This document shows, piece after piece, positions 1,277 through 64,000 of a stretch of DNA of 64,000 nucleotides. The DNA lies in contig OY855912.1 in the NCBI GenBank assembly GCA_963693305.1, forward strand, positions 126,501 to 190,500, in the 5' to 3' direction. The position numbers and the translations under genes are program-made. Position 1 is the stretch's first letter. Each line of letters starts with the position of its first letter. The notes under the pieces are model-generated. The model ran no database searches and was not told the DNA's origin. It saw nothing but the letters and a program-made list of their open reading frames with translations. This DNA comes from Meandrina meandrites (lineage: Eukaryota > Cnidaria > Anthozoa > Scleractinia > Meandrinidae).

Positions 1277-3410
1277 ACGGTACACTGTACTCTTTGCACT
1301 ATACACGGTACACTGTACTCTGTGCACTATACACGGTACACTGTACTCTTTGCACTATACACGGTACACTGTACTCTGTGCACTATGCACGGTACACTGT
1401 ACTCTGTGCACTGTGCACTATACACGGTACACTCTACTCTGTGCACTATACACGGTACACTGTACTCTGTGCACTATACACGGTACACTGTACTCTGTGC
1501 ACTATACACGGTACACTGTACTCTGTGCACTGTGCACCATACACGGTACACTGTACTCTGTGCACAATACACGGTACACTGTACTCTCTGCACTGTGCAC
1601 TATACACGGTACACTGTACTCTGTGCACTGTACACCATACACGGTACACAGTACTCTGTGCACTATATACGGTACACTGTACTCTATGCCCTGTGCACTA
1701 AACACGGTACACTGTACTCTGTGCACTGTGCACTATACACGGTACACTGTACCCTGTGCACTGTGTACTATACACGGTACACTCTACTCTGTGCACTGTG
1801 ACCTATACACGGTACACTGTACTCTGTGCACTGTGCACTATACACGGTACACTGTACTCTGTGCACTGTGCACTATACACGGTACACTGTACTCTGTGTG
1901 CTGGGCACTATACACGGTACACTGTACGCTGTGCACTGTGCACCATACACGGTACACTGTACTCTGTGCACTGTGCACTATACACAGTACACTGTACTCT
2001 GCACTATACACGGTACACTGTACTCTATGCCCTGTGCACTAAACACGGTACACTGTACTCTGTGCACTGTGCACTATCCACGGTACACTGTACCCTGTGC
2101 ACTGTGTACTATACACAGTACACTGTACTCTGTGCACTGTGCACTATACACGGTACACTGTACTCTGTGCACTATACACGGCACACTGTACTCTGTTCAG
2201 TATACACGTAAACTGTACTCTGTGCACTGTACACCATACACGGTACAAAGTACTCTGTGCACTATACACGGTACACTGTACTCTTTGCACTATACACGGT
2301 ACACTGTACGCTGTGCACTGTTCACTATACACGGTACACTGTACTCTGTGCACTGTGCACTATACACAGTACACTGTACTCTGCACTATACACGGTACAC
2401 TGTACTCTATGTCCTGTGCACTAAACACGGTACACTGTACTCTGTGCACTGTGCACTATACACGGTACACTGTACTCTGTGCACTGTGCACTAAACACGG
2501 TACACTGTACTCTGTGCACTATACACGGTACACTGTACTATGTTCACTATACACGGTACACTGTACTCTGTGCACTGTACTCTGTGCACTGTACACTATA
2601 CACGGTACACTGTACTCTGTGCACTATACACGGTACACTGTACTCTGTGCACTGTGCACTATACACGGTACACTGTACTCTGTGTGCTGTGCACTATACA
2701 CGGTACACTGTACGCTGTGCACTGTGCACTATACACGGTACACTGTACTCTGTGCACTGTGCACTATACACAGTACACTGTACTCTGCACTATACACGGT
2801 ACACTGTACTCTATGCCCTGTGCACTAAACACGGTACACTGTACTCTGTGCACTGTGCACTATACACGGTACACTGTACCCTGTGCACTGTGTACTATAC
2901 ACGGTACACTGTACTCTGTGCACTGTGAACTATACACGGTACACTGTACTCTTTGCACTATACACGGCACATTGTACTCTGTTCACTATACACGGTACAC
3001 TGTAGTCTGTGCACTGTACACCATACACGGTACACAGTACTCTGTGCACTATACACGGTACACTGTACTCTGTGCGCTGTGCCCTATACACGGTACACTG
3101 TACTCTGTGCACTGTGCACTGTGCACTATACACGGTACACTGTACTCTGTGCACTGTGCACTGTGCACTATACACGGTACACTGTACTCTGTGCACTGTG
3201 CACTATACACGGTATAGTAGTATATACGGTATATACAAGGTATATACACTGTACTCTGTGCGCTGTGCACTATACACGGTAGACTGTACTCTGTGCACTG
3301 TGCACTGTGCACCATACACGGTACACTGTACTCTCTGCACTGTGCACTATACACGGTACACTGTACTCTCTGCACTAGACACGGTACACTGTACTCTGTG
3401 CACTACACAG
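1277..3410 (+). repeat. Satellite A array, plus orientation (block 1)
   Basis: The tandem array starts abruptly at ACGGTACACTGTACTC. Each unit consists of 7-bp words: GTGCACT (one to three times), ATACACG, GTACACT and GTACTCT, giving periods of 28, 35 or 42 bp. All three plus-strand frames lack stops through the consensus (reading VHYTRYTVLC, CTIHGTLYS and ALYTVHCTL), and two minus frames are also open, so the long open frames here are not genes. A TATA-rich box lies at about 3211-3249 with an AAGG variant. The CGGCACATTG variant starts at 2965, 446 bp outside the A/B boundary, and recurs mirror-wise at the other boundaries. Confidence 0.95.
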
Positions 3411-6331
3411 CTGGCTTTTTGCGCTGCTTGCAAAAGCCGACCCAAAATTTTGGTTTGAAACCAAACTCGTGGAATTCGATCCCAAGGGTGTTTTTTCGTT
3501 TCGCCTCGATGGGGAATCTCAAAAAAACGAGTTTTGAACGCAATTGGACGACCTTCGTCAACCCAGCGTTTTCCGCTACTTGGTAAATCCACCCCAAAAT
3601 GGTGGTATGAAACCGACCTCGTGGAAATCGATCCCAAGGGTGTTTTTTCGTTTTGCCCCGATGGGGATAGTAGGAAAAACGAGTTTTGAACGCAATTGGA
3701 CGACCTTCGTCAACCCGGCGTTTTGCGCTGCTGGGAAAAGCCCACCCAAAATGGTGGTATGAAGCCGACCTCGTGGAATTCGATCCAAAGGGTGTTTTTT
3801 CGTTTCGCCACTATGGGGAAACTCGAAAAAACGAGTTTTCAACGCAATTGGACGACATTCGTCAACCCGCCTTTTTGCAGTGCTTGCAAAAGCCCAGCAA
3901 AAATGGTGGTATGAAACCGACCTCGTGGAATTTGATCCCAAGGGTGTTTTTTTGTTCCGTCCCGATGGGGAAACTCGACAAAACGAGTTTTCAACCCAAT
4001 TGGACGACCTTGGTCAAACCGGCGTTTTGCGCTGCTTGGAAAATCCCACCCAAAATGGTGGTATGAAACCGACCTCGTGGAATTCGATCACAAGGGTGTC
4101 TTTTCGTTTCGCCCCGATGGGGAAACTCGACAAAACGAGTTTTGAACGCAATTGGCCGACCTTCGTCAACCCGGCGTTTTCCGCTGCTTGGTAAAGCCCA
4201 GCAAAAATAGGGGTATGAAACCGACCTCGTGGAATTCGATCCCAAGGGTGTTTTTTCGTTTCGCCCCGATGGGGAAAGTTGAAAAAACGCGTTTTGAATG
4301 CAATTGGACGACCTTCGTGAACCCGGCTTTTTCCGCTGCTTGGAAAAGCCCACCCAAAATGGTGGCAGGAAACCGAAATTGTAAAATTCGATCCCAAGCG
4401 TGTTTTTTCGTTTCTCCCCGATGGGCAAAGTTCAAAAAACTCGTTTTGAACGCAATTGGACGACCTTCGTCAACCCGGCTTTTTCCGCTGCTTGGATAAG
4501 CCCACCCAAAGTAGTGCCATGAAACCGAAATTGTAAAATTCGATCCCAAGGGTTTTTTTTCGTTTCGCTATGAATGGGAAAGTTGAAAAAACGCGTTTTG
4601 AACGCAATTCGACGACCTTCGTGAACCCGGCTTTTTCCGCTGCTTGGAAAAGCCCACCCAAAATGGTGGCATGAAACCGAAATTGTAAAATTCGATCCCA
4701 AGGGTGTTTTTTCGTTTCGCCCCGATGGGGAAAGTTGAAAAAACGCGTTTTGAAAGCAATTGGACGACCTTCGTGAACCCGGCTTTTTCCGCTGCTTGGA
4801 AAAGCCCACCCAAAATGGTGGCAGGAAACCGAAATTGTAAAATTCCATCCCAAGCGTGTTTTTTCGTTTCTCCCCGATGGGGAAAGTTCAAAAAACTCGT
4901 TTTGAACGCAATTGGACGACCTTCGTCAACCCGGCCTTTTCCGCTGCTTGGATAAGCCCACCCAAAATGATTCCATGAAACCGAAATTGTAAAATTCGAT
5001 CCCAATGGTGTTTTTTCGTTTCCCTCTGAATAAGAAAGGGTAAAAAACGCGTTTAGAACGCAATTGGACGACCTTCGTGAACCCGGCTTTTTCCGCTGCT
5101 TGGAAAAGCCCACCCAAAATGGTGGCATGAAACCGAAATTGTAAAATTCGATCCCAAGGGTGTTTTTTCGCTTCGCCCCGATGGGGAAAGGTTAAAAATC
5201 GCGTTTTGAACGCAATTGGACGACCTTCGTCAACCCGGCCTTTTCCGCTGCTTGGAAAAGCCCACCCAAAATGGTGGCAGGAAACCCAAATTGTAAAATT
5301 CGATCCCAAGGGTGTTTTTTCGTTTCGCCCCGATGGGGAAAGGTTAATAAACGCGTTTGGAACGCAATTCGACGACCTTCGTGAACCCGGCTTTTTCCGC
5401 TGCTTGGAAAAGCCCACCCAAAATGGTGGCATGAAACCGAAATTGGAAAATTCGATCCCAAGGGTGTTTTTTCGCTTCGCCCCGATGGGGAAAGGTTAAA
5501 AAACGCGTTTTGAACGCAATTCGACGACCTTCGTGAACCCGGCTTTTTCCGCTGCTTGGAAAAGCCCACCCAAAATGGTGGCAGGAAACCGAAATTGTAA
5601 AATTCGATCCCAAGCGTGTTTTTTCGTTTCTCCCCGATGGGCAAAGTTCAAAAAACTCGTTTTGAACGCAATTGGACGACCTTCGTCAACCCGGCTTTTT
5701 CCGCTGCTTGGATAAGCCCACCCAAAATGGTGCCATGAAACCGAAATTGTAAAATTCGATCCCTAGGGTGTTTTTTCGTTTCGCTCTGAATGGGAAAGTT
5801 GAAAAAACGCGTTTTGAACGCAATTCGACGAACTTCGTGAACCCGGCTTTTTCCGCTGCTTGGAAAAGCCCACCCAAAATGGTGGCATGAAACCGAAATT
5901 GTAAAATTCGATCCCAAGGGTGTTTTTTCGCTTCGCCCCGATGGGGAAAGGTTAAAAAACGCGTTTTGAACGCAATTCGACGACCTTCGTGAACCCGGCT
6001 TTTTCCGCTGCTTGGAAAAGCCCACCCAAAATGGTGGCAGGAAACCGAAATTGTAAAATTCGATCCCAAGCGTGTTTTTTCGTTTCTCCCCGATGGGCAA
6101 AGTTCAAAAAACTCGTTTTGAACGCAATTGGACGACCTTCGTCAACCCGGCTTTTTCCGCTGCTTGGATAAGCCCACCCAAAATGGTGCCATGAAACCGA
6201 AATTGTAAAATTCGATCCCTAGGGTGTTTTTTCGTTTGGCTCTGAATGGGAAAGTTGAAAAAACCCGTTTTGAACGCAATTCGACGACCTTCGTGAACCC
6301 GGCTTTTTCCGCTGCTTGGAAAAGCCCACCC
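3411..6331 (+). repeat. Satellite B array, plus orientation (left arm of palindrome 1)
   Basis: About 19 tandem copies of a 152-bp unit. Landmarks in order are GGCTTTTTGCGCTGCTTG, CCACCCAAAATGGTGG (a small hairpin), a variable segment, GATCCCAAGGGTGTTTTTTC, CCCCGATGGGG, AAAACG(A/C)GTTTT and GGACGACCTTCGTCAACCCG. The first six or so copies, to about 4345, are subfamily B1: the variable segment reads GACCTCGTGGAATTC and the motif is AAAACGAGTTTT. From about 4345 inward they are B2: GAAATTGTAAAATTC and the perfect palindrome AAAACGCGTTTT, for example 4284-4295. In 5192-6103 a 456-bp (three-unit) higher-order repeat occurs twice. Open frames reading FWVGFSKQRKKPG-type text come from the repeat. 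Confidence 0.95.
5192..6103 (+). repeat. 456-bp (3 x 152) higher-order repeat, two copies
   Basis: Variant patterns recur at an offset of exactly 456 bp: GGTTAAAAA(A/T)CGCG, then CCCAAGCGTG with CGATGGGCAAAGTTC. For example 5533-5715 matches 5989-6171. Three 152-bp units restore the reading frame, which is why identical open frames reappear here. Confidence 0.8.
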
Positions 6332-6358
6332 AAAATGGTGGCATGAAACCGAAATTTC
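6332..6358. repeat. Inversion centre J1 between B+ and B- arms (27-bp spacer)
   Basis: The plus-oriented array stops at GCCCACCC (6324-6331) and the complementary GGGTGGGC (6359-6366) starts the minus-oriented array. The 27-base spacer begins AAAATGGTGG and contains most of CCGAAATTTCGG (6349-6360), a perfect 12-bp palindrome. The spacer at 49323-49349 is its exact reverse complement. Confidence 0.9.
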
Positions 6359-9300
6359 GGGTGGGCTTTTCCAAGCAGCGGAAAAAGCCAGGTTGACGAA
6401 GGTCGTCGAATTGCGTTCCAAACGCGTATTTTCAACTTTCCCCATCGGGGAGAAACGAAAAAACACTCTTGGGATCGAATTTTAAAATTTCGGTTTCCTG
6501 CCACCATTTTGGGTGGGCTTTTCCAAGCAGCGGAAAAAGCCGGGTTAACGAAGGTCGTCCAATTGCTTTCAAAACGCGTTTTTTCAACTTTCCCCATCGG
6601 GGCAAAACGAAAAAACACCCTTGGGATCGAATTTTACAATTTCGGTTTTATGCCACCATTTTGGGTGGGCTTTTCCAAGCAGCGGAAAAAGCTGGGTTCA
6701 CGAAGGTCGTCCCATTGCGTTCAAAACGCGTTTTTTCAACTTTCCCCATCGGGGCGAAACGCAAAAACACCCTTGGGATCGAATTTTACAATTTCGGTTT
6801 CATGCCACCATATTGGGTGGGTTTTTCGAAGCAGCGGAAGAAGCCGGGTGTACGAAGGTCGTCCAATTGCGTTCAAAACGCGTTTTTTCAACTTTCCCCA
6901 TCGGGGCGAAACGAAAAAACACCCTTGGGATCTAATTTTACAATTTCGGTTTCATGCCACCATTTTGGGTGGGCTTTTCCAAGCAGCGGAAAAAGCCCGG
7001 TTGACGAAGGTCGTCGAATTGCGTTCGAAACAAGTATTTTCAACTTACCCCATCGGGGAGAAACGAAAAAACACTCTTGGTATCGAATTTTACAATTTCG
7101 GTCTCCTGCCACCATTTTGGGTGGGCTTTTCCAAGCAGCGGAAAAAGCCGGGTTCACGAAGGTCGTCCAATTGCTTTCAAAACGCGTTTATTCAACTTTC
7201 CCCATCGGGGCGAAACGAAAAAACACCCTTGGGATCGAATTTTAAAATTTCGGCTTCATGCCACCATTTTCGGTGGGTTTTTCGAAGCAGCGGAAGAAGC
7301 CGGGTGTACGAAGGTCGTCCAATTGCGTTCAAAACGCGTTTTTTCAACTTTCCCCATCGGGGCGAAACGAAAAAACACCCTTGGGATCGAATTTTAAAAT
7401 TTCGGTTTCATGCCACCATTTTGGGTGGGTTTTTCGAAGCAGCGGAAGAAGCCGGGTGTACGAAGGTCGTCCAATTGCGTTCAAAACGCGTTTTTTCAAC
7501 TTTCCCCATCGGGGCGAAACGAAAAAACACACTTGGGATCTAATTTTACAATTTCAGTTTCATGCCACCATTTTGGGTGGGCTTTTCCAAGCAGCGGAAA
7601 AAGCTGGGTTCACGAAGGTCGTCCCATTGCGTTCAAAACGCGTTTTTTCAACTTTCCCCATCGGGGCGAAACGCAAAAACACCCTTGGGATCAAATTTTA
7701 CAATTTCGGTTTCATGCCACCATTTTGGGTGGGTTTTTTGAAGCAGCGGAAGAAGCCGGGTGTACGAAGGTCGTCCAATTGCTTTCAAAACGCGTTTATT
7801 CAACTTTCCCCATCGGGGCGAAACGAAAAAACACCCTTGGGATCGAATTTTAAAATTTCGGCTTCATGCCACCATTTTCGGTGGGTTTTTCGAAGCAGCG
7901 GAAGAAGCCGGGTGTACGAAGGTCGTCCAATTGCGTTCAAAACGCGTTTTTTCAACTTTCCCCATCGGGGCGAAACGAAAAAACACCCTTGGGATCGAAT
8001 TTTAAAATTTCGGTTTCATGCCACCATTTTGGGTGGGTTTTTCGAAGCAGCGGAAGAAGCCGGGTGTACGAAGGTCGTCCAATTGCGTTCAAAACGCGTT
8101 TTTTCAACTTTCCCCATCGGGGCGAAACGAAAAAACACACTTGGGATCTAATTTTACAATTTCAGTTTCATGCCACCATTTTGGGTGGGCTTTTCCAAGC
8201 AGCGGAAAAAGCTGGGTTCACGAAGGTCGTCCCATTGCGTTCAAAACGCGTTTTTTCAACTTTCCCCATCGGGGCGAAACGCAAAAACACCCTTGGGATC
8301 AAATTTTACAATTTCGGTTTCATGCCACCATTTTGGGTGGGTTTTTTGAAGCAGCGGAAGAAGCCGGGTGTACGAAGGTCGTCCAATTGCGTTCAAAACG
8401 CGTTTTTTCAACTTTCCCCATCGGGGCGAAACGAAAAAACACCCTTGGGATCTAATTTTACAATTTCGGTTTCATGCCACCATTTTGGGTGGGCTTTTCC
8501 AAGCAGCGGAAAAAGCCGGGTTCACGAAGGTCGTCGAATTGCGTTCGAAACGCGTATTTTCAACTTACCCCATCGGGGAGAAACGAAAAAACACTCTTGG
8601 TATCGAATTTTACAATTTCGGTCTCCTGCCACCATTTTGGGTGGGTTTTTCGAAGCAGCGGAAGAAGCCGGGTGTACAAAGGTCGTACAATTGCGTTCAA
8701 AATGCGTTTTTTCAACTTTCCCCGTCTTGGCAAAACGAAAAAACAACCTTGGGATCGAATTTTACAATTTCGGTTTCATGCCACCATTTTGGGTGGGCTT
8801 TTACAAGCAGCGGAAAAAGCCGGGTTCACGAAGGTCGTCGAATTGCGTTCGAAACGCGTATTTTCAACTTACCCCATCGGGGAGAAACGAAAAAACACTC
8901 TTGGTATCGAATTTTACAATTTCGGTCTCCTGCCACCATTTTGGGTGGGTTTTTCGAAGCAGCGGAAGAAGCCGGGTGTACAAAGGTCGTACAATTGCGT
9001 TCAAAATGCGTTTTTTCAACTTTCCCCGTCTTGGCAAAACGAAAAAACAACCTTGGGATCGAATTTTACAATTTCGGTTTCATGCCACCATTTTGGGTGG
9101 GCTTTTACAAGCAGCGGAAAAAGCCGGGTTCACGAAGGTCGTCCAATTGCGTTCAAAACGCGTTTTTTCAACTTTCCCCATCGGGGCGAAACGAAAAAAC
9201 ACACTTGGGATCGAATTTTACAATTTCGGTTTCCTGCCACCATTTTGGGTGGGCTTTTCCAAGCAGCGGAAAAAGCCGGGTTCACGAAGGTCGTCGAATT

Positions 9301-11217
9301 GCGTTCTAAACTCGTTTTTTCAACTTTCCCATTCAGAGCGAAACGAAAAAACACCCTTGGGATCGAATTTTACAATTTCGGTTTCATGGCACCATTTTGG
9401 GTGGGCTTATCCAAGCAGCGGAAAAAGCCGGGTTGAAGAAGGTCGTCCAATTGCGTTCAAAACGAGTTTTTTGAACTTTCCCCATCGGGGAGAAACGAAA
9501 AAACACGCTTGGGATCGAATTTTACAATTTCGGTTTCCTGCCACCATTTTGGGTGGGCTTTTCCAAGCAGCGGAAAAAGCCGGGTTCACGAAGGTCGTCC
9601 AATTGCTTTCAAAACGCGTTTTTTCAACTTTCCCCATCGGGGCGAAACGAAAAAACACCCTTGGGATCGAATTTTACAATTTCGGTTTTATGCCACCATT
9701 TTGGGTGGGCCTTTCCAAGCAGCGGAAAAAGCCGGGTTGACGAAGGTCGTCCAATTGCGTTCAAAACGCGTTTTTTCAACTTTCCCCATCGGGGCGAAGC
9801 GAAAAAACACCCTTGGGATCGAATTCCAGGAGGTCGGTTTCATACCCCTATTTTTGCTGGGCTTTACCAAGCAGCAGAAAACGCCGGGTTGACGAAGGTC
9901 GTCCAATTGCGTTCAAAACTCGTTTTGTCGAGTTTCCCCATCGGGACGAAACGAAAAAACACCCTTGTGATCGAATTCCACGAGGTCAGTTTCATACCAC
10001 CATTTTGGGTGGGATTTTCGAAGCAGCGCAAAACGCCGGTTTGACCAAGGTCGTCCAATTGGGTTGAAAACTCGTTTTTTCGAGTTTCCCCATTGGGGCG
10101 AAACGAAAAAACACCCTTGCGATCAAGTTCCACAAGGTCGGTTTCATACCACCATTTTGGGTGGGCTAGCTTTTACAAGCAGTGCAAAAAGGCGGGTTGA
10201 CGAAGGTCGTTTTTTCGACTTTCCCCATCGGGGCGAAACGAAAAAACACCCTTGGGATCGAATTCCACGAGGTCGGTTTCATACCCCTATTTTTGCTGGG
10301 CTTTACCAAGCAGTGCAAAAAGGCGGGTTGACGAAGGTCGTTTTTTCGACTTTCCCCATCGGGGCGAAACGAAAAAACACCCTTGGGATCGAATTCCACG
10401 AGGTCGGTTTCATACCCCTATTTTTGCTGGGCTTTACCAAGCAGCGGAAAACGCCGGGGTGACGAAGATCGTCCAATTGCGTTCAAAACTCGTTTTGTCG
10501 AGTTTCCCCATCGGGGCGAAACGAAAAAACACCCTTGTGATCGAATTCCACGAGGTCAGTTTCATACCACCATTTTGGGTGGGATTTTCGAAGCAGCGCA
10601 AAACGCCGGTTTGACCAAGGTCGTCCAATTGGGTTGAAAACTCGTTTTGTCGAGTTTCCCCATCGGGACGGAACAAAAAAACACCCTTGGGATCAAAATC
10701 CACGAGGTCGGTTTCATACCCCTATTTTTGCTGGGCTTTTGCAAGCAGTGCAAAAAGGCGGGTTGACGAATGTCGTCCAATTGCGTTGAAAACTCGTTTT
10801 TTCGAGTTTCCCCATCGGGGCGAAACGAAAAAACACCCTTTGGATCGAATTCCACGAGGTCGGCTTCATACCACCATTTTGGGTGGGCTTTTCCCAGCAG
10901 CGCAAAACGCCGGGTTGACGAAGGTCGTCCAATTGCGTTCAAAACTCGTTTTTTCGACTATCCCCATCGGGGCAAAACGAAAAAACACCCTTGGGATCGA
11001 TTTCCACGAGGTCGGTTTCATACCACCATTTTGGGGTGGATTTACCAAGTAGCAGAAAACGTTGGGTTGACGAAGGTCGTCCAATTGCGTTCAAAACTCG
11101 TTTTTTTGAGATTCCCCATCGAGGCGAAACGAAAAAACACCCTTGGGATCGAATTCCACGAGTTTGGTTTCAAACCACAATTTTGGGTCGGCTTTTGCAA
11201 GCAGCGCAAAAAGCCAG
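6359..11217 (-). repeat. Satellite B array, minus orientation (right arm of palindrome 1)
   Basis: About 32 copies of the 152-bp unit, reversed relative to the left arm. B2 copies extend to about 9820, then B1 copies run to the A boundary, mirroring the left arm. Around 7258-8393 about 530 bp is repeated nearly perfectly at a 608-bp offset (four units). Positions 8522-8746 and 8826-9050 repeat at 304 bp (two units). Near 10160-10400 two units lack about 21 bp (GGTCG runs straight into TTTTTTCGAC), giving a 131-bp spacing, and one has a TAGC insertion. The long plus-strand open frame at 7866-9740 is a repeat artefact. Confidence 0.95.
7258..8473 (-). repeat. 608-bp (4 x 152) higher-order duplication inside satellite B
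   Basis: The segment from 7258 to about 7785 and the segment from 7866 to about 8393 agree almost base for base, sharing rare variants such as CACACTTGGGATCTAATTTT and CATTTTCGGTGGG. The 608-bp offset is exactly four monomers, so this is a recent block duplication. Confidence 0.85.
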
Positions 11218-14200
11218 CTGTGTAGTGCACAGAGTACAGTGTACCGTGTCTAGTGCAGAGAGTACAGTGTACCGTGTAAAGTGCACAGTGCAGAGAGTAC
11301 AGTGTACCGTGTATGGTGCACAGTGCACAGTGCACAGAGTACAGTGTATCGTGTATAGTGCACAGCGCACAGAGTACAGTGTAAATACCTTGTATATACC
11401 GTATATACTACTATACCGTGTATAGTGCAAAGTGCACAGAGTACAGTGTACCGTGTATAGTGCACAGTGCACAGAGCACAGAGTACAGTGTACCGTGTAT
11501 AGTGCACAGTGCACAGTGCACAGAGTACAGTGTACCGTGTATAGTGCACAGCGCACAGAGTACAGTGTACCGTGTATAGTGCACAGAGTACTGTGTACCG
11601 TGTATGGTGTACAGTGCACAGAGTACAGTGTACCCTATATAGTGAACAGAGTACAATGTGCCGTGTATAGTGCACAGAGTACAGTGTACCGTGTATAGTT
11701 CACAGTGCACAGAGTACAGTGTACCGTGTATAGTACACAGTGCACAGGGTACAGTGTACCGTGTATAGTGCACAGTGCACAGAGTACAGTGTACCGTGTT
11801 TAGTGCACAGGGCATAGAGGACAGTGTTCCGTGTATAGTGCAAAGAGTACAGTGTACCGTGTATAGTGCACAGTGCACAGAGTACAGTGTACCGTGTATA
11901 GAGCACAGTGCACTGAGTCCAGTGTACCGTGTATAGTGCACAGTGCACAGAGTACAGTGTACCGTGTATAGTGCACAGTGCACAGAGTACAGTGTACCGT
12001 GTATAGTGCACAGTGCACAGTGCACAGAGTACAGTGTACCGTGTATAGTGCACAGCGCACAGAGTACAGTGTATATACCGTGTATATACCATGTATATAC
12101 CGTGTATATACCGTGTATATACCGTATATACTACTATACCGTGTATAGTGCACAGTGCACAGAGTACAGTGTACCGTGTATAGTGCACAGTGCACAGTGC
12201 ACAGTGTACCGTTTATAGTGCACAGCGTACAGTGTACCGTGTATAGTGCACAGAGTAGAGTGTACCGTGTATAGTGCACAGTGCACAGAGTACAGTGTAC
12301 CGTGCATAGTGCACAGTGCACTGAGTCCAGTGTACCGTGTATAGTGCACAGTGCACAGAGTACAGTGTACCGTGTATAGTGCACAGTGAACAGAGTACAG
12401 TGTACCGTGTATAGTGCACAGTGCACAGTGCACAGAGTACAGTGTACCGTGTATAGTGCACAGTGCACAGTGCACAGAGTACAGTGTACCGTGTATAGTG
12501 CACAGCGCACAGAGTACAGTGTACCGTGTATAGTGCACAGAGTACTTTGTACCCTGTATGGTGTACAGTGCAAAGAGTACAGTTTACCGTGTATACTGAA
12601 CAGAGTACAGTGTACCGTGTATAGTGCACAGTGCACAGAGTACAGTGTACCGTGTATAGTACGCAGTGCACAGGGTACAGTGTACCGTGTATAGTGCACA
12701 GTGCACAGAGTACAGTGTACCGTGCATAGTGCTCAGTGCACTGAATCCAGTGTACCGTGTATAGTGCACAGTGCACAGAGTACAGTGTACCGTGTATAGT
12801 GCACAGTGAACAGAGTACAGTGTACCGTGTATAGTGCACAGTGCACAGTGCACAGAGTACAGTGTACTGTGTATAGTGCACAGTGCACAGTGCACCGAGT
12901 ACAGTGTACCGTGTATAGTGCACAGCGCACAGAGTACAGTGTACCGTGTATAGTGCACAGAGTACTTTGTACCCTGTATGGTGTACAGTGCACAGAGTAC
13001 AGTTTACCGTGTATACTGAACAGAGTACAGTGTGCCGTGTATAGTGCACAGAGTACAGTGTACCGTGTATAGTGCACAGTGCACAGAGTACAGTGTACCG
13101 TGTATAGTACACAGTGCACAGGGTACAGTGTACCGTGTATAGTGCACAGTGCACAGAGTACAGTGTACCGTGTTTAGTGCACATGGCATAGAGTACAGTG
13201 TACCGTGTATAGTGCAGAGTACAGTGTACTGTGTATAGTGCACAGTGCACAGAGTACAGTGTACCGTGTATAGTGCACAGTGCACAGCGTACAGTGTACC
13301 GTGTATAGTGCCCAGCACACAGAGTACAGTGTACCGTGTATAGTGCACAGTGCACAGAGTACAGTGTACCGTGTATAGTGCACAGTGCACAGAGTACAGT
13401 GTACCGTGTATAGTGCACAGTGCACAGAGTACAGTGTACCGTGTATAGTGCACAGAGTACAGTGTTCCGTGTATAGTGTACAGTGCACAGAGTACAGTGC
13501 ACAGAGTACAGTGTACTGTGTATAGTGATCATAGTACAGTGTACCGTGTATAGTGCACATAGTACAGTGTACCGTGTTTAGTGCACAGTGCACAGAGTAC
13601 AGTGTACCGTGTATAATGCACAGCGCACAGAGTACAGTGTACCGTGTATAGTGCACAGAGTACTGTGTACCGTGTATGGTGTACAGTGCACAGAGTACAG
13701 TGTACCGTGTATAGTGAACAGATTACAGTGTGCCGTGTATAGTGCACAGAGTACAGTGTACCGTGTATAGTGCACAGTGCACAGAGTACAGTGTACCGTG
13801 TATAGTACACAGTGCACAGGGTACAGTGTACCGTGTATAGTGCACAGTGCACAGAGTACAGTGTACCGTGTATAGTGCACAGAGTACTGTGTACCGTGTA
13901 TGGTGTACAGTGCACAGAGTACAGTGTACCGTGTATAGTGAACAGAGTACAGTGTGCCGTGTAAAGTGCACAGAGTACAGTGTACCGTGTATAGTGCACA
14001 GTGCACAGAGTACAGTGTACCGTGTATAGTTCACAGTGCACAGGGTACAGTGTACTGTGTATAGTGAAAAGTGCACAGAGTACAGTGTACCGTGTTTAGT
14101 GCACAGGGCATAGAGTACAGTGTATAGTGCGCAGAGTACTGTGTACCGTGTATGGTGTACAGTGCACAGAGTACAGTGTACCGTTTATAGTGCACAGAGT

Positions 14201-18233: not shown

Positions 18234-18389
18234 TGTAATAGATGGAAATATACCGTATTGTTATGTATTGTACCTGAAATTGTATGAAAATGTATTGGAG
18301 AACTGTTGTACTGGAGTTAGCTGTTGTTGTTTGGTTTGCCTCTACTTTACCTTATTTAAGTTTGCTTGTAATGTGTGTAATTGTATTGG

Positions 18390-52998: not shown

Positions 52999-55900
52999 CT
53001 GTGTAGTGCACAGAGTACAGTGTACCGTGTCTAGTGCAGAGAGTACAGTGTACCCTGTATAGTGCACAGTGCAGAGAGTACAGTTTACCGTGTATGGTGC
53101 ACAGTGCACAGTGCACAGAGTACAGTGTACCGTGTATAGTGCACAGCGCACAGAGTACAGTGTATATACCTTGTATATACCGTATATACTACTATACCGT
53201 GTATAGTGCACAGTGCACAGAGTACAGTGTACCGTGTATAGTGCACAGTGCACAGTGCACAGAGTACAGTGTACCGTGTATAGTGCACAGTGCACAGTGC
53301 ACATTGCACAGAGTACAGTGTACCGTGTATAGTGCACAGTGCACAGAGTACAGTGTACCGTGTATAGTGCACAGAGTACTGTGTACCGTGTATGGTGTAC
53401 AGTGCATAGATTACAGTGTACCGTGTATCGTGAACAGAGTACAATGTGCCGTGTATAGTGCACAGAGTACAGTGTACCATGTATAGTTCACAGTGCACAG
53501 AGTACAGTGTACCGTGTATAGTACACAGTGCACAGGGTACAGTGTACCGTGTATAGTGCACAGTGCACAGAGTACAGTGTACCGTGTTTAGTGCACAGGG
53601 CATAGAGTACAGTGTACCGTGTATAGTGCAGAGTACAGTGTACTGTGTATAGTGCACAGTGCACAGAGTACAGTGTACCGTGTATAGTGCACAGTGCACA
53701 GCGTACAGTGTACCGTGTATAGTGCACAGCACACAGAGTACAGTGTACCGTGTATAGTGCACAGTGCACAGAGTACAGTGTACCGTGTATAGTGCACAGA
53801 GTACAGTGTACCGTGTATAGTGTACAGTGCACAGAGTACAGTGCACAGAGTACAGTGTACCGTGTATAGTGAACATAGTACAGTGTACCGTGTATAGTGC
53901 ACAGAGTACAGTGTACCGTGTATAGTGCACAGTGCACAGAGTACAGTGTACCGTGTATAGTACACAGTGCACAGGGTACAGTGTACCGTGTATAGTGCAC
54001 AGTGCACAGAGTACAGTGTACCGTGTTTAGTGCACAGGGTATAGAGTACAGTGTACCGTGTATAGTGCAGAGTACAGTGTACTGTGTATAGTGCACAGTG
54101 CACAGAGTACAGTGTACCGTGTATAGTGCACAGTGCACAGCGTACAGTGTACCGTGTATAGTGCACAGCACACAGAGTACAGTGTACCGTGTGTAGTGCA
54201 CAGTGCACAGAGTACAGTGTACCGTGTATAGTGCACAGTGAACAGAGTACAGTGTACCGTGTATAGTGCACAGTGCACAGAGTACAGTGTACCGTGTTTA
54301 GTGCACAGGGCATAGAGTACAATGTACCGTGTAAAGTGCAGAGTACAGTGTACTGTGTATAGTGCACAGTACACAGAGTACAGTGTACCGTGTATAGTGC
54401 AAAATGCACAGCGTACAGTGTACCGTGTATAGTGCACAGCACACAGAGTACAGTGTACCGTGTATAGTGCACAGTGCACAGAGTACAGTGCACCGTGTAT
54501 AGTGCACAGTGCACAGAGTACAGTGTACCGTGTATAGTGCACGGTGCACAGAGTACAGTGTACCGTGTATAGTGCACATTGCACAGAGTACAGTTTACCA
54601 CGTATAGTGCACAGGGCACAGAGTACAGTGTACCGTGGATAGTGCACAGAGTACAGGGTACTGTGTATAGTGGACAGTGCACAGAGTACAGTGTACCGTG
54701 TATAGTGCACAGTGCACAGTGTACCATGTATAGTGAACAGAGTACAGTGTACCGTGTATAGTAAAAAGTGCACAGAGTACAGTGTACCGTGTATAGTGCA
54801 CAGAGTACAGTGTACCGTTTAAAGTGCACAGTGCACAAAGTACAGTGTACTGTGTATAGTGCACAGAGTACAGTGTACCGTGTATTAGAAAACAGTGCAC
54901 AGTGCACAGAGTACAGTGTACCGTGTATAGTGCACAGTGCAGAGAGTACACTGTACCGTGTATAGTGCACAGTGCACAGTGCACAGAGTACAGTGTACCG
55001 TGTATAGTGCACAGCGCACAGAGTACAGTGTACCGTGTATAGTGCACAGAGTACTGTGTACCGTGTATGGTGTACACTGCACAGAGTACAGTGTACCATG
55101 TATAGTGAACAGAGTACAGTGTGCAGTGTATAGTGCACAGAGTACAGTGTACCGTGTATAGTGCACAGTGCACAGAGTACAGTGTACCGTGTATAGTACA
55201 CAGTGCACAGGGTACAGTGTACCATGTATAGTGCACAGTGCACAGAGTACAGTGTACCGTGTATAGTGCACAGAGTACTGTGTACCGTGTATGGTGTACA
55301 GTGCACAGAGTACAGTGTACCTTGTATAGTGAACCGAGTACAGTGTGCCGTGTATAGTGCACAGAGTACAGTGTACCGTGTATAGTGCACAGTGCACAGA
55401 GTACAGTGTACCGTGTATAGTGCACAGTGCACAGAGTACAGTTTACCGTGTATAGTGCACAGTGCACAGAGTACAGTGTACCGTGTATAGTGCACAGTGC
55501 ACAGTGCACAGAGTACAGTGTACCGTGTATAGTGCACAGCGCACAGAGTACAGTGTATATACCGTGTATATACCGTGTATATACCGTGTATATACCGTAT
55601 ATACTACTATACCGTGTATAGTGCACAGTGCACAGAGTACAGTGTACCGTGTATAGTGCACAGCACACAGAGTACAGTGTACCGTGTATAGTGCACAGAG
55701 TACTGTGTATCGTGTATGGTGTATAGTGCACAGAGTACAGTGTACCGTGTATAGTGCACAGAGTAGAGTGTACCGTGTATAGTGCACAGTGCACAGAGTA
55801 CAGTGTACCGTGCATAGTGCACAGTGCAGAGAGTACAGTGTACCGTGTATAGTGCAAAGAGTACAGTGTACCGTGTATAGTGCACAGTGAACAGAGTACA

Positions 55901-58900
55901 GTGTGCCGTGTATAGTGCACAGTGCACAGAGTACAGTGTACCGTGTATAGTGCACAGCGCACAGAGTACAGTGTATATACCGTGTATATACCGTGTATAT
56001 ACCGTGTATATACCGTATATACTACTATACCGTGTATAGTGCACAGTGCACAGAGTACAGTGTACCGTGTATAGTGCACAGTGCACAGTGCACAGAGTAC
56101 AGTGTACCGTGTATAGTGCACAGAGTACAGTGTAATGTGTATAGTGCACAGAGTAGAGTGTACCGTGTATAGTGCACAGTGCACAGAGTACAGTGTACCG
56201 TGCATAGTGCACAGTGCACTGAGTCCAGTGTACCGTGTATAGTGCACAGTGCACAGAGTACAGTGTACCGTGTATAGTGCACAGTGCACAGAGTACAGTG
56301 TACGGTGTATAGTGCACAGTGCACAGTGCACAGAGTACAGTGTACCGTGTATAGTGCACAGTGCACAGTGCACAGAGTACAGTGTACCGTGTATAGTGCA
56401 CAGCGCACAGAGTACAGTGTACCGTGTATAGTGCACAGAGTACTGTGTAACGTGTATGGTGTACAGTGCACAGAGTACAGTGTACCGTGTATAGTGAACA
56501 GAGTACAGTGTGCCGTGTATAGTGCACAGTGCACAGTGCACAGAGTACAGTGTACCGTGTATAGTGCACAGAGTACAGTGTACCGTGTTTAGTGCACAGG
56601 GCATAGAGTACAGTGTACCGTGTATAGTGCAGAGTACAGTGTACTGTGTATAGTGCACAGTGCACAGAGTACAGTTTACTGTGTATAGTGCACAGTGCAC
56701 AGCGTACAGTGTACCGTGTATAGTGCACAGCACACAGAGTACAGTGTACCGTGTATAGTGCACAGTGCACAGAGTACAGTGTACCGTGTATAGTGCACAG
56801 TGCACAGAGTACAGTGTACCGTGTATAGTGCACAGTGCACAGAGTACAGTGTACCGTGTATAGTGCACAGTGCACAGAGTACAGTGTACCGTGTATAGTG
56901 CACAGAGTACAGTGTACCATGTATAGTGTACAGTGCACAGAGTACAGTGCACAGAGTACAGTGTACCGTGTATAGTGAACATAGTACAGTGTACCGTGTA
57001 TAGTGCACATAGTACAGTGTACCGTGTTTAGTGCACAGTGCACAGAGTACAGTGTACCGTGTATACTGCACATTGCACAGAGTACAGTGTACCGTGTATA
57101 GAGCACAGTGCACTGAGTCCAGTGTACCGTGTATAGTGCACAGTGCACAGAGTACAGTGTACAGTGTATAGTGCACATTGCACAGAGTACAGTGTACCGT
57201 GTATAGTGCACAGTGCACAGTGCACAGAGTACAGTGTACCGTGTATAGTGCACAACGCACAGAGTACAGTGTATATACCGTGTATATACCGTGTATATAC
57301 CGTATATACTACTATACCGTGTATAGTGCACAGTGCACAGAGTACAGTGTACCGTGTATAGTGCACAGTGCACAGTGCACAGAGTACAGTGTACCGTGTA
57401 TAGTGCACAGAGTACAGTGTACCGTGTATAGTGCACAGAGTAGAGTGTACCGTGTATAGTGCACAGTGCACAGAGTACAGTGTACCGTGTATAGTGCACA
57501 TTGCACAGAGTACAGTGTACCGTGTATAGTGCACAGTGCACAGTGCATAGAGTACAGTGTACCGTGTATAGTGCACAGCGCACAGAGTACAGTGTATATA
57601 CCGTGTATAAACCGAGTATATACCGTATATACTACTATACCGTGTATAGTGCACAGTGCACAGAGTACAGTGTACCGTGTATAGTGCACAGTGCACAGTG
57701 CACAGAGTACAGTGTACCGTGTATAGTGCACAGAGTACGGTGTACCGTGTATAGTGCACAGAGTAGAGTGTACCGTGTATAGTGCACAGTGCATAGAGTA
57801 CAGTGTACCGTGCATAGTGCACAGTGCACTGAGTCCAGTGTACAGTGCACAGTGCACAGTGCACAGAGTACAGTGTACAGTGTATAGTGCACAGTGCACA
57901 GTGCACAGAGTACAGTGTACCGTGTATAGTGCACAGCACACATAGTACAGTGTACCGTGTATAGTGCACAGAGTACAGTGTACCGTGTATAGTGCACAGA
58001 GTAGAGTGTACCGTGTATAGTGCACAGTGCACAGAGTACAGTGTACCGTGCATAGTGCACAGTGCACTGAGTCCAGTGTACAGTGCACAGTGCACAGTGC
58101 ACAGAGTACAGTGTACAGTGTATAGTGCACAGTGCACAGTGCACAGAGTACAGTGTACCGTGTATAGTGCACATTGCACAGAGTACAGTGTACCACGTAT
58201 AGTGCACAGGGCACAGAGTACAGTGTACCGTGGATAGTGCACAGAGTACAGGGTACTGTGTATAGTGGACAGTGCACAGAGTACAGTGTACCGTGTATAG
58301 TGCACAGTGCACAGTGTACCATGTATAGTGAACAGAGTACAGTGTACCGTGTATAGTGCACAGCACACAGAGTACAGGGTACCGTGTTTAGTGCACAGTG
58401 CACAGAGTACAGTGCACCGTGTAAAGTGCACAGTGCACAGAGTACAGTGTACCTTGTATAGTGCACGCTGCACAGAGTACAGTGTACCGTGTATAGTGCA
58501 CAGTGCACAGAGTACAGTGTACCACGTATAGTGCACAGGGCACAGAGTACAGTGTACTGTGGATAGTGCACAGAGTACAGGGTACTGTGTATAGTGGACA
58601 GTGCACAGAGTACAGTGTACCGTGTATAGTGCACAGCGCACATAGTACAGTGTACCGTGTATAGTGCACAGAGTACTGTGTACCGTGTATGGTGTACAGT
58701 GCACAGAGTACAGTGTACCCTGTATAGTGCACAGAGTACAGTGTACCGTGTATAGTGCACAGAGTACAGTGTACCGTGTATAGTGCACAGTGCACAGAGT
58801 ACAGTGTACCGTGTATAGTACACAGTGCACAGGGTACAGTGTACCGTGTATAGTGCACAGTGCACAGAGTACAGTGTACCGTGTTTAGTGCACAGGGCAT

Positions 58901-60151
58901 AGAGTACAGTGTACCGTGTATAGTGCAGAGTACAGTGTACTGTGTATAGTGCACAGTGCACAGAGTACAGTGTACCGTGTATAGTGCACAGTGCACAGCG
59001 TACAGTGTACCGTGTATAGTGCACAGCACACAGAGTACAGTGTACCGTGTGTAGTGCACAGTGCACAGAGTACAGTGTACCGTGTATAGTGCACAGTGCA
59101 CAGAGTACAGTGTACCGTGTATAGTGCACAGTGCACAGAGTACAGTGTACCGTGTATAGTGCACAGTGCACAGAGTACAGTGTACCGTGTATAGTGCACA
59201 GAGTACAGTGTACCGTGTAAAGTGCACAGTGCATAGAGTACAGTGTACCGTGTATAGTGCACAGTGCACAGTGCAAAAAGTACAGTGTACCGTGTATAGT
59301 GCACAGCGCACAGAGTACAGTGTAAATACCGTGTATATACCGTGTATATACCGTATATACTACTATACCGTGTATAGTGCACAGTGCACAGAGTACAGTG
59401 TACCGTGTATAGTGCACAGTGCACAGTTCACAGTGTACAGTGTACCGTGTATAGTGCACAGAGTACAGTGTACCATGTATAGTGCACAGAGTAGAGTGTA
59501 CCGTGTATAGTGCACAGTGCACAGAGTACAGTGTACCGTGCATAGTGCACAGTGCACTGAGTCCAGTGTACAGTGTATAGTGCACAGTGCACAGAGTACA
59601 GTGTACCTTGTATAGTGCACAGTGCACAGAGTACAGTGTTCCGTGTATAGTGCACAGTGCACAGTCCACAGAGTACAGTGTACCGTGTATAGTGCACAGT
59701 GCACAGTGCACAGAGTACAGTGTACCGTGTATAGTGCACAGCGCACAGAGTACAGTGTACCGTGTATAGTGCACAGAGTACTGTGTACCGTGTATGGTGT
59801 ACAGTGCACAGAGTACAGTGTACCGTGTATAGTGAACAGAGTAAAGTGTACCGTGTATAGTGCACAGTGCACACAGTACAGTGTACCGTGTATAGTACAC
59901 AGTGCACAGGGTACAGTGTACCGTGTATAGTGCAGAGTGCACAGAGTACAGTGTACCGTGTTTAGTGCACAGGGCATAGAGTACAGTGTACCGTGTATAG
60001 TGCAGAGTACAGTGTACTGTGTATAGTGCACAGTGCACAGAGTACAGTGTACCGTGTATAGTGCACAGTGCACAGCGTACAGTGTACCGTGTATAGTGCA
60101 CAGCACACAGAGTACAGTGTACCGTGTATAGTGCACAGTGCATAGAGTACA
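52999..60151 (-). repeat. Satellite A array, minus orientation (block 6)
   Basis: Starts with CTGTGTAGTGCACAGAG as at 11218. Variant CAATGTGCCG ends at 53451, 453 bp from the boundary, seven more than the usual 446. The GTGTATTAGAAAACAGTGC marker is near 54879-54897 with its CCACGTATAGTGC partner near 54598. Further CACGTATAG copies lie near 58194 and 58523. TATA-rich boxes lie near 53160, 55556, 55973, 57272, 57594 (degenerate) and 59323. The 943-codon open frame at 57312-60143, the longest in the window, is a repeat artefact. Confidence 0.95.
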
Positions 60152-60159
60152 GTGTACCG
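60152..60159. repeat. Inversion centre J2' within satellite A (8-bp spacer)
   Basis: A left arm ending GAGTACA (60145-60151) faces TGTACTCTGTGC (from 60160) across GTGTACCG, the reverse complement of the J2 spacer. The diagnostic CTCTGTGCTCTGTG is now on the right side, so flanks and spacer are both flipped relative to J2. Confidence 0.9.
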
Positions 60160-63100
60160 TGTACTCTGTGCTCTGTGCACTATACACGGTACACTGTACG
60201 CTGTGCACTGTGCACTATACACTGTACACTGTACTCTGTGCACTGTGCACTATACACAGTACACTGTACTCTGCACTATACACAGTACACTGTACTCTAT
60301 GCCGTGTGCACTAAACACGGTACACTGTACTCTGTGCACTGTGCAATATACACGGTACACTGTACCCTGTGCACTGTGTACTATACACGGTACACTGTAC
60401 TCTGAGCACTGTGCACTATACACGGTACACTGTACTCTGTGCACTATACACGGCACACTGTACTCTGTTCACTATACACGGTACACTGTACTCTGTGCAC
60501 TGTACACCATACACGGTACACAGTACTCTGTGCACTATACACGGTACACTGTACTCTGTGCGCTGTGCACTGTGCACTATACACGGTACACTGTACTCTG
60601 TGCACTGTGCACTATACACTGTACACTGGACTCTGTGCACCGTGCACTATGCACGGTACACTGGACTCAGTGCACTGTGCACTATGCACGGTACACTGTA
60701 CTCTGTGCACTGTGCACTATACACGGTACACTCTACTCTGTGCACTATACACGGTACACTGTACTCTGTGCACTATACATGGTACACTGTACTCTGTGCA
60801 CTGTGGACTGTGCACTATACACGGTACACTCTACTCTGTGCGCTGTGCACTATACACGGTACACTGTACTCTGTGCACTGTGCACTGTGCACTATACACG
60901 GTACACTGTACTCTGTGCACTGTGCACTATACACGGTACACTGTACTCTGTGCACTGTGCACTATACACGGTACACTGGACTCAGTGCACTGTGCTCTAT
61001 ACACGGTACACTGTACTCTGTGCACTGTGCACTATACACGGTACACTGTACTCTGTGCACTATACACGGTACACTGTACTCTTTGCACTATATACGGTAC
61101 ACTGTACTCTGTGCACTATACACGGTACACTGTACTCTCTGCACTGTGCAGTAGGCATGGTACACTGTACTCTGTGCACTGTGCACTATACACGGTACAC
61201 TCTACTCTGTGCACTATACACGGTACACTGTACTCTGTGCACTATACACGGTACACTGTACTCTGTGCACTATAAACGGTACACTGTAATCTGTGCACTG
61301 TGCACCATACACGGTACACTGTGTACTCTCTTCACTGTGCACTATACACGGTACACTGTACTCTGTGCACTGTACACCATACACGGTACACAGTACTCTG
61401 TGCACTATACACGGTACACTGTACTCTATGCCCTGTGCACTAAACACGGTACACTGTACTCTGTGCACTGTGCACTGTGCACTATACACGGTACACTGTA
61501 CTCTGTGCACTGTGCACTGTGCATTATACACGGTACACTATACTCTGTGCACTGTGCGCTGTGCACTATACACGGTACACTGTACTCTTTGCACTGTGCA
61601 CTGTGCACTATACACGGTACACTGTACTCTGTGCAATGTGCACTATACACGGTACACTGTACTCTGTGCACTGTGCACTGTTTTCAATTACACGGTACAC
61701 TGTACTCTGTGCACTATACACAGTACACTGTACTCTGTGCACTGTGCACTATAAACGGTACACTGTACTCTGTGCACTATACACGGTACACTGTACTCTG
61801 TGCACTGTGTACTATACATGGTACACTGTACTCTGTTCACTATACATGGTACACTGTGCACTGTGCACTATACACGGTACACTGTACTCTCTGCACTGTC
61901 CACTATTCACAGTACCCTGTACTCTGTGCACTATCCACGGTACACTGTACTCTGTGCCCTCTGCACTATACGTGGTACACTGTACTCTGTGCACTGTGCA
62001 CTATACACGGTACACTGTACTCTGTGCACCGTGCACTATACAAGGTACACTGTACTCTGTGCACTGTGCACTATACACGGTGCACTGTACTCTGTGCACT
62101 GTGCACTATACACGGTACCCTGTACTCTGTATGCTGTGCACTATACACGGTACACTGTACGATGTGCACTGTGCACTATACACGGTACACTGTACTCTGT
62201 GCACTGTGCACTATACACAGTACACTGTACTCTGCACTTTACACGGTACACTATACTCTATGCCCTGTGCACTAAACACGGTACACTGTACTCTGTGCAC
62301 TGTGCACTATACACGGTACACTGTACTCTGTGCACTGTGCACTATACACGGTAAACTGTACTCTGTGCACTGTGCACTAAACACGGTACACTGTACTATG
62401 TGCACTATACATGGTACACTGTACTATGTTCACTATACACGGTACACTGTACTCTGTGCACTGTACTCTGTGCATTGTACACTATACACGGTACACTGTA
62501 CTCTGTGCACTATACACGGTACACTGTACTCTGTGCACTGTGCACTATACACGGTACACTGTACTCTGTGCACTGTGCACTATACACGGTACACTGTACT
62601 CTGTGCACTGTGCACTATACACGGTACACTGTACTCTGTGCACTGTGCACTATACACGGTACACTGTACTCTGTGTGCTGTGCACTATACACGGTACACT
62701 GTACGCTGTGCACTGTGCACTATACACGGTACACTGTACTCTGTGCACTGTGTACTATACACAGTACACTGTACTCTGCACTATACACGGTACACTGTAC
62801 TCTATGCCCTGTGCACTAAACACGGTACACTGTACTCTGTGCACTCTGCACTATACACGGTACACTGTACCCTGTGCACTGTGTACTATACACGGTACAC
62901 TGTACTCTGTGCACTGTGCACTATACACGGTACACTGTACTCTGTTCACTATACACGGTACACTGTCTTCTGTGCACTGTACACCATACACGGTACACAG
63001 TACTCTGTGCACTATACACGGTACACTGTACTCTGTGCGCTGTGCACTATACACGGTACACTGTACTCTGTGCACTGTGCACTCTGCACTATACACGGTA

Positions 63101-63963
63101 CACTGTACTCTGTGCACTGTGCACTATACATGGTACACTGTACTCTGTGCACTGTGCACTATACACTGTACACTGGACTCAGTGCACTGTGCACTATGCA
63201 CAGTACACTGTACTCTGTGCACTGTGCACTATACACGGTATAGTAGTATATACGGTATATACACTGTACTCTGTGCGCTGTGCACTATAAACAGTACACT
63301 GTACTCCGTGCACTGTGCACTGTGCACTTTACACGGTACACTGTACTCTGTGCACTGTGCACTATACAGGGTACACTGTACTCTGTGCACTGTGCTCTAT
63401 ACACGGTACACTGTACTCTGTGCACTGTGCACTATACACGGTACACTGGACTCAGTGCACTGTGCACTATGCACGGTACACTGTACTCTGTGCACTGTGC
63501 ACTATACACGGTACACTCTACTCTGTGCACTATACACATTACACTGTACTCTGTGCACTATACACGGTACACTGTACTCTGTGCACTGTGCACTGTGCAC
63601 TATACACGGTACACTGTACTCTGTGCACTGTGCACTATACACGGTATAGTAGTATATACGGTATATACACGGTATATACACGGTATATACACGGTATATA
63701 CACTGTACTCTGTGCGCTGTGCACTATACACGGTACACTGTACTCTGTGCACTGTGCACTATACACGGCACACTGTACTCTGTTCACTGTGCACTAAACA
63801 CGGTACACTGTACTATGTGCACTATACACGGTACACTGTACTATGTTCACTATACACGGTACACTGTACTCTGTGCACTGTACTCTGTGCACTGTACACT
63901 ATACACGGTACACAGTACTCTGTACACTATACACGGTACACTGTACTCTGTGCACTGTGCACT
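60160..63963 (+). repeat. Satellite A array, plus orientation (block 7)
   Basis: About 3.8 kb. A variant marker GCACTGTTTTCAATTACAC is near 61675, with CTATACGTGGTACACTG about 290 bp downstream. TATA-rich boxes lie at about 63238 (a single 11-bp unit, the shortest in the window) and 63644-63703. It ends at GTGCACTG, where a B unit takes over. Confidence 0.95.
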
Positions 63964-64000
63964 GAACGCAATTGGACGACCTTCGTCAACCCGGCTTTTT
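63964..64000 (+). repeat. Satellite B fragment at the right edge
   Basis: GAACGCAATTGGACGACCTT and the following CGTCAACCCGGCTTTTT match the B unit in plus orientation. This A-to-B switch occurs at a different point of the B unit from the five copied boundaries, so it is a separate junction. The array continues beyond the window. Confidence 0.9.

What the first reader, a model, noticed from the sequence alone, without database searches (positions are those of the whole stretch)
1277..64000. Two unrelated satellites arranged as a chain of giant nested palindromes
Reading the unit orientation gives A+B+|B-A-|A+B+ A-|A+B+|B-A-|A+B+, with five strand flips and five copied A/B boundaries in 63 kb. 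Satellites normally keep one orientation over long stretches. Here inversion is part of the organisation, and two satellites share the same mirror structure. Arms correspond position by position near the boundaries. I know of no described family with this composite structure, but I could not search.
Basis: partly seen in the sequence, partly recalled or inferred. Interest (0 to 1): 0.85.

Follow-up and report, generated by a model that had tools for sequence, protein, structure and literature searches.

The report
Mirror-image satellite chains at coral chromosome ends
Near a chromosome end in what is probably a stony coral, two unrelated repetitive DNAs alternate in mirror-image orientation over a long stretch, and a few original inversion points were copied many times; a similar arrangement is in print for Tribolium beetles, there put near centromeres rather than chromosome ends.

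Summary
The chain is real, with corrections. The window is C10:126501-190500 of a 551-Mb genome, probably a stony coral, beginning about 122 kb inside telomere repeats. It holds six strand flips, not five; five canonical A/B boundaries; and one non-canonical A/B join at 63,964. Alternation runs over C10:62.7-255.5 kb with 17 direct flips in six junction classes. Exact copies genome-wide: J_B 10 (C10 and C17), J_A 6 (C10), both in both orientations. The exact A/B boundary occurs 146 times; the 100 listed all lie within 0.72 Mb of contig ends of C1-C9, orientation alternating more than chance. A 65-87-kb tandem duplication carries five flips with matching junctions; one J_A centre is inverted inside direct flanks. 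Best reading: a subtelomeric higher-order repeat founded by few inverted duplications, amplified by segmental duplication, reshuffled by arm-to-arm exchange. New variant: different phylum, subtelomeric, junctions nearly private to one chromosome. Raw-read support untested.

The parts
1..1276 (+). right end of a non-satellite spacer (U) that borders A; the full spacer at C10:123.6-127.75 kb is a 202-bp satellite (C) plus ~2.4 kb U with a gene-like remnant on the minus strand
   Evidence: copies at C10:207.65-212.45 (99.2%) and 255.5-260.15 kb (97.3%)
1277..3410 (+). A+ satellite
3401..3431 (+). canonical A/B boundary 31-mer (copy 1 of 5 in window; 146 exact genome-wide)
3411..6356 (+). B+ satellite (152 bp)
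6345..6375 (+). flip J_B, forward orientation (B+|B-)
6357..11216 (-). B- satellite
11197..11227 (-). canonical A/B boundary, copy 2
11217..23254 (-). A- satellite (interrupted by LINE)
16697..18425 (+). truncated non-LTR retrotransposon (LINE), 511-aa open frame, poly(A) 33
   Evidence: its own zf-RVT match is below the Pfam cut-off
23240..23269 (+). flip J_A, forward orientation (A-|A+)
23256..35983 (+). A+ satellite
35974..36004 (+). canonical A/B boundary, copy 3
35984..37737 (+). B+ satellite
37726..37754 (+). flip J_BA (B+|A-); second copy at C10:90859 in same orientation
37738..46900 (-). A- satellite
46891..46925 (+). flip J_A' (A-|A+); second copy at C10:101295
46901..47617 (+). A+ satellite
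47608..47638 (+). canonical A/B boundary, copy 4
47618..49321 (+). B+ satellite
49306..49336 (-). flip J_B, reverse orientation
49323..52999 (-). B- satellite
52978..53008 (-). canonical A/B boundary, copy 5
53000..60159 (-). A- satellite
60148..60177 (-). flip J_A, reverse orientation
60161..63964 (+). A+ satellite
63965..64000 (+). B+ satellite after a non-canonical A/B join (31-mer not found there with up to 3 mismatches)

Best explanation
The window is part of a subtelomeric higher-order repeat whose unit is a palindrome-like block, [A+B+|B-A-], with a spacer (satellite C plus sequence U) at some A centres. SHOWN: one exact A/B boundary is present at many chromosome ends; on C10 the flips are copies of a few inversion junctions; a 65-87-kb block carrying many flips was duplicated in tandem; both main junctions exist in both orientations, and at one J_A pair the centre (about half a kb) matches inverted inside flanks that stay direct. 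INFERRED: each founding junction arose once by inverted duplication at a broken or stalled end (fold-back priming, breakage-fusion-bridge or an ODIRA-like event); unequal and ectopic exchange between chromosome ends then copied the blocks; and pairing between inverted arms flips centres and homogenises the A/B boundaries. INFERRED: the result is ordinary subtelomeric heterochromatin with no demonstrated sequence-specific function.
For: Position and telomere. Alternation over C10:62.7-255.5 kb, 17 direct flips plus A-centres that hold a spacer. R1 (84.3-149.75 kb) is collinear with R2 (149.75-237.0 kb); anchors run 85.05-148.64 against 150.85-237.0 kb. Five homologous flip pairs agree at the junction, with 476/500, 485/489, 487/500, 486/500 and 492/500 identical bases around it. 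J_B 31-mer: 10 exact places (8 on C10, 2 on C17; 3 forward, 7 reverse; reversed control 0); with up to 3 mismatches 15 places (10 C10, 4 C17, 1 at C2:21.2 Mb with 3 mismatches). J_A 30-mer, exact only: 6 places, all C10, 3 of each orientation, control 0. Chance that two random joins share a 30-mer: 2.4e-6 for B, 7.7e-5 for A. Boundary 31-mer: 146 exact (61+, 85-), control 0; the 100 listed lie within 0.72 Mb of an end of C1-C9 (contig lengths). Spacing of adjacent listed boundaries: under 12 kb, '+-' 13, '-+' 1, same orientation 10 of 24; 12-30 kb, '-+' 17, '+-' 5, same 3 of 25. Centre inversion at the 109970/186660 pair. A perfect 20.7-copy CCCTAA tract joins the B array at C10:62.68 kb in telomere orientation.
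Against: My first idea, that centres are deletion hot spots, failed: 27 indels of at least 200 bp between R1 and R2 lie no nearer to flips than random points (3135 against 3277 bp, p=0.39). Mirror arms at the window flips are no more alike than random same-satellite pairs, so the founding inversions are old or erased and their mechanism cannot be read. Hairpin loop sizes at junctions are set modulo the repeat period, so they do not tell fold-back from end fusion. The flip pair 84.3/149.75 between R1 and R2 does not share a junction. The second J_A pair (149755/237032) shows a clear inverted match on one side only. 31 of 85 listed neighbours share orientation. No read-level support could be tested, and the genome tool warns that its counts are lower bounds.
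Confidence: 0.66

Rival explanations
1. Assembly artefact: fold-back (chimeric) reads or misjoined repeats created the flips.
For: Satellite arrays are error-prone to assemble; no raw reads were available here; C17, which shares J_B, is a 203,583-base contig that may be an unplaced piece or haplotig.
Against: Fold-back reads give near-identical arms; here the five arms that could be aligned are 84.6-91.2% alike, i.e. baseline. The same junction recurs with flanks diverged by about 1-10%. R1 and R2 differ by a LINE and an inverted U fragment. Alternation recurs on other chromosomes.
Confidence: 0.07
2. The flips are many independent inversions, one per site.
For: Six junction classes exist on C10, and C7 has a junction of its own, present twice in opposite orientation (524837 and 629543, score 127 of 140). 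J_B within 3 mismatches was found on C10 and C17 plus one interior C2 place only, and exact J_A on C10 only, so other ends probably have their own.
Against: On C10, 17 flips reduce to six classes, and one class accounts for six flips. Another C7 flip (630135) scores 70-81 of 140 against J_A copies, below my class cut, so a remote shared origin is not excluded.
Confidence: 0.12
3. Amplification through inverted-dimer circles (ODIRA 'dog-bone' intermediates) that integrate at chromosome ends, rather than by exchange within chromosomes.
For: A circular inverted dimer has one head-to-head and one tail-to-tail junction, as A centres and B centres alternate here (PMC4689423, passages).
Against: Tandem integration of one circle predicts fixed relative orientation of J_A and J_B; here they vary independently along C10, and R1/R2 is a direct duplication.
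Confidence: 0.13
4. Macro-dyad symmetry is selected: hairpin- or cruciform-capable arrays have a role at chromosome ends, as proposed for Tribolium (peri)centromeres.
For: The same architecture with unrelated satellites in a different phylum, and strong homogenisation of the transition zone.
Against: No protein or chromatin evidence; arms at flips are not kept alike; homogenisation is also expected from exchange alone.
Confidence: 0.15

Closest known systems
Macro-dyad symmetries of Tribolium madens TmSat1/TmSat2 (and T. freemani, T. castaneum), PMC13081366
   Same: Two intermingled satellites, each in multi-kb inverted subarrays; [quoted passage not shown] madens; symmetries of a few to several tens of kb (12 of 27 passages and the Discussion read).
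   Different: There putatively (peri)centromeric, with inversion sites conserved over thousands of copies; here subtelomeric, in a probable coral, with a third satellite and a spacer, and inversion junctions found almost only on C10/C17 while the A/B boundary is genome-wide. A and B are unrelated; TmSat1/TmSat2 share an ancestor, but the T. freemani and T. castaneum pairs are unrelated too.
Subterminal caps of African great apes (pCht 32-bp satellite with spacer segmental duplications), PMC12058530
   Same: Subterminal satellite arrays organised in higher-order units with a captured non-satellite spacer (12 passages of 39).
   Different: Satellite tracts of 335-536 kb between spacers against units of roughly 10-30 kb here; one satellite; alternating orientation was not mentioned in the passages I saw.
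Inverted amplification: ODIRA (PMC4689423, passages) and fold-back inverted duplication (PMC3907307, abstract)
   Different: Known from recent events in yeast and patients; here old, in satellites, and the junction anatomy is not readable because of the repeat period.

Membership tests
Macro-dyad satellite symmetries (Tribolium type) | both satellites form multi-kb direct and inverted subarrays | tested here: met
Macro-dyad satellite symmetries (Tribolium type) | conserved transition zone between the satellites | tested here: met
   15 C10 boundaries 98-99% alike over +-600 bp, one of them 96-97%; 146 exact 31-mers
Macro-dyad satellite symmetries (Tribolium type) | inversion sites conserved across the genome | tested here: not met
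   J_B within 3 mismatches on C10/C17 apart from one C2 place; J_A, searched exact only, on C10 only; other junction classes were not searched genome-wide
Macro-dyad satellite symmetries (Tribolium type) | (peri)centromeric location | tested here: not met
   100 listed boundaries lie within 0.72 Mb of contig ends, at both ends of C3 and C5-C9; C10 end has telomere repeats. Centromeres themselves were not mapped
Macro-dyad satellite symmetries (Tribolium type) | structure seen on raw long reads | not testable with these tools
   no reads available
[quoted passage not shown]
   two B+|A- joins are the exception
Inverted amplification (fold-back / ODIRA / breakage-fusion-bridge) | short interrupted inverted repeat at the founding junction | tested here: inconclusive
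   apparent hairpins at five of six window flips are expected in any tandem array, loop size being modulo the period
Foldback (FB-like) transposon | fixed outer ends and an encoded transposase | tested here: inconclusive
   one spacer ORF matches coral hypothetical proteins, no transposase match seen; satellite blocks vary in length; FB features are recalled, not looked up

The most novel reading that the evidence does not exclude
Mirror-image satellite chains are a convergent, self-renewing architecture: each chromosome end of this coral founds its own inversion junctions, amplifies them in tandem, and keeps inverting palindrome centres by arm-to-arm exchange, so strand orientation at chromosome ends is in continual flux while the A/B transition zone is held nearly constant genome-wide.
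Probability: 0.33. Interest if true: 0.75.

Novelty: new variant of a known kind. Interest (0 to 1): 0.6.

Why it matters
A 2026 paper states that macro-dyad satellite symmetries were documented only in Tribolium (PMC13081366). An independent case in a cnidarian, at chromosome ends and with unrelated sequences, would show that the architecture is not a beetle or centromere peculiarity. Because the inversion junctions tested here are nearly private to one chromosome while the A/B boundary is genome-wide, the two processes (making inversions, exchanging sequence between ends) can be separated and dated, which makes the question of how inverted satellite arrays arise testable.

Tried and rejected
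Palindrome-centre deletion hot spot: suggested by self-BLAST, rejected by the indel test and because the blocks first compared are not duplicated partners. Mirror arms at flips as recent copies: rejected. Foldback-transposon reading of A- spacer A+: not supported. Rfam (gathering threshold) and ARAGORN scans of the window: 0 each. Pfam on the LINE ORF and two spacer ORFs: zf-RVT 23.7 bits (cut-off 27.5), SFXNs 13 bits (cut-off 22), nothing for the third. B motif in viral contigs and genome contigs: 0 matches each. Literature on coral satellites: nothing matching in the listings (20 of 30 and 20 of 64 papers listed, titles and abstract starts only); coral cytogenetics and zoantharian repeat papers in those lists were not opened. 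The rye subtelomere paper showed no inverted-array passage; the satellite review showed none on array inversion; the Edessa paper holds 'macro-dyad' only in its reference to the Tribolium work; one human centromere paper was not held. Genome-wide searches with B itself, the spacer and the telomere motif did not complete. Statements about what is not in print rest and on the sentence in PMC13081366.
Full report
What was checked. A is built on a 7-bp theme in 28- and 35-bp units; B is a 152-bp satellite. They gave no blastn hit to each other.

Where it lies. The window is C10:126501-190500 of a genome of 551,114,374 bases in 56 contigs. C10 is 32,534,660 bases long and starts, after 2,500 N, with CCCTAA telomere repeats at 2501-4220. 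The identification as a stony coral is inference: a LINE fragment at 16,697-18,425 matches an Oculina patagonica protein at 92% over 10% of the query, among 35 hits of which only two carry a name, and an ORF in the spacer matches an Acropora cervicornis protein at 76% over 52%, among 15 hits.

The chain is longer than the window. Over C10:62.7-255.5 kb the alternation continues with 17 direct flips. Three further A- to A+ transitions (the last ending at 260.15 kb) hold a 4-5-kb spacer, in the same orientation each time and 96-99% alike, made of a third satellite of 202 bp and a ~2.4-kb stretch U; the last 1 kb of U also occurs inverted at 202.85-203.85 kb. The array begins at 62.68 kb directly after a perfect 20.7-copy telomere repeat in telomere orientation, which looks like a former chromosome end; that is inference.

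The flips are copies. The block 84.3-149.75 kb is collinear with 149.75-237.0 kb. Five flip pairs between the blocks agree at the junction, with 476/500, 485/489, 487/500, 486/500 and 492/500 identical bases around it. Comparing all 17 flips over +-70 bp gives six classes: J_B six, J_A four, then 2, 2, 2 and 1 (within-class scores 107-140 of 140 in the better orientation, between-class scores up to 83). Genome-wide, the J_B 31-mer has 10 exact places (8 C10, 2 C17; 3 forward, 7 reverse) and 15 with up to three mismatches (10 C10, 4 C17, 1 interior place on C2 with three mismatches). The J_A 30-mer has 6 exact places, all on C10, three in each orientation; it was not searched with mismatches. 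The other four classes were not searched genome-wide. Two random joins of the same satellites share a 30-mer with probability 2.4e-6 (B) or 7.7e-5 (A). The C17 place at 170.8 kb has a short B+ piece, then B- and A-.

Orientation of centres. J_A is forward at 110.0 and 149.8 kb and reverse at the corresponding sites 186.7 and 237.0 kb. For the first pair the centre (about -300 to +150 bp) matches best in inverted sense, by small margins in some bins, while flanks from about +450 bp and mostly from about -750 bp match in direct sense or equally. Crossing over between the arms of a palindrome predicts this. The second pair matches inverted on the left in most bins for about 3 kb but is unclear on the right.

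The A/B boundary. The 31-mer across it occurs 146 times exactly (61 forward, 85 reverse). The tool listed 100; these lie within 0.72 Mb of contig ends of C1-C9, at both ends of C3 and C5-C9. On C10:62.5-260.5 kb, 15 copies within three mismatches (13 exact) are 98-99% alike over +-600 bp whatever their orientation, except one at 96-97%. Mean identity is 93-99% in the first 800 bp and about 82-93% farther out, dropping to 70-71% in the last A bin (2400-2600 bp). In the listed 100, 54 of 85 neighbouring pairs are opposite (permutation p=0.0032); below 12 kb apart the pairs are '+-' 13, '-+' 1, same 10 of 24, and at 12-30 kb '-+' 17, '+-' 5, same 3 of 25. So among listed places blocks joined through B tend to be short and blocks joined through A longer.

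What it is not. The arms at the window flips are not mirror copies beyond the satellite baseline, which speaks against fold-back read artefacts and also means the founding events are old or erased. Indels between the duplicated blocks are not concentrated at flips (27 indels, p=0.39). Two C7 flips form a separate class in opposite orientation, so inversions have probably been founded more than once in this genome; a third C7 flip scores 70-81 of 140 against J_A, which leaves a remote relation open.

Mechanism. Shown: copying of junctions, tandem duplication of a multi-flip block, both orientations of junctions, one local centre inversion, wide spread of the A/B boundary. Inferred: founding by fold-back, breakage-fusion-bridge or ODIRA-type inverted duplication; spread by unequal and ectopic exchange between chromosome ends; homogenisation by conversion. 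Junction hairpins cannot decide, because in a tandem array the apparent loop is always shorter than a period.

Comparison. The closest described case is the Tribolium macro-dyad organisation (PMC13081366; abstract, 12 passages and the Discussion read). That paper says such symmetries had been documented only in Tribolium. The present case shares inverted subarrays and a conserved transition zone, but differs in location (subtelomere) and in inversion sites that, as far as searched, are nearly private to one chromosome. Ape subterminal caps (PMC12058530, passages) share position and captured spacers. Strand inversions in human satellites are recalled, not looked up.

Limits. After rechecking I lowered the best explanation from 0.68 to 0.66 and the novel case from 0.35 to 0.33, because J_A was searched without mismatches and four classes were not searched genome-wide.

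Noticed in passing
C10:62558-62681 (outside window): A perfect 20.7-copy CCCTAA tract joins the B array directly, in telomere orientation, 58 kb inside the present telomere; a second, less perfect tract (95% matches) lies at 9259-9420. Looks like a captured former chromosome end.
   Followed up: partly
window 16697-18425: Truncated non-LTR retrotransposon with an open 511-codon frame and 33-base poly(A), absent from the matching place in block R2; a 13-base repeat flanks it but is part of the A unit.
   Followed up: partly
C10:125.34-127.78 kb and copies; window 1-1276: Spacer U carries a minus-strand remnant of a protein of unknown function with relatives in corals (e.g. Acropora cervicornis).
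   Followed up: partly
C10:123.6-125.34 kb and copies: Third satellite, 202-bp period, about 9-12 copies, left of U in the three copies seen.
   Followed up: partly
C7:524837, 629543 and 630135; C6:39769692 and 39771210: Strand flips in A arrays of other chromosome ends; C7 524837 and 629543 are the same junction in opposite orientation.
   Followed up: partly
C10:232.3-234.3 kb: A 2-kb non-satellite insert in A- of block R2, with no blastn match to the spacers or the LINE insert it was compared with.
   Followed up: no
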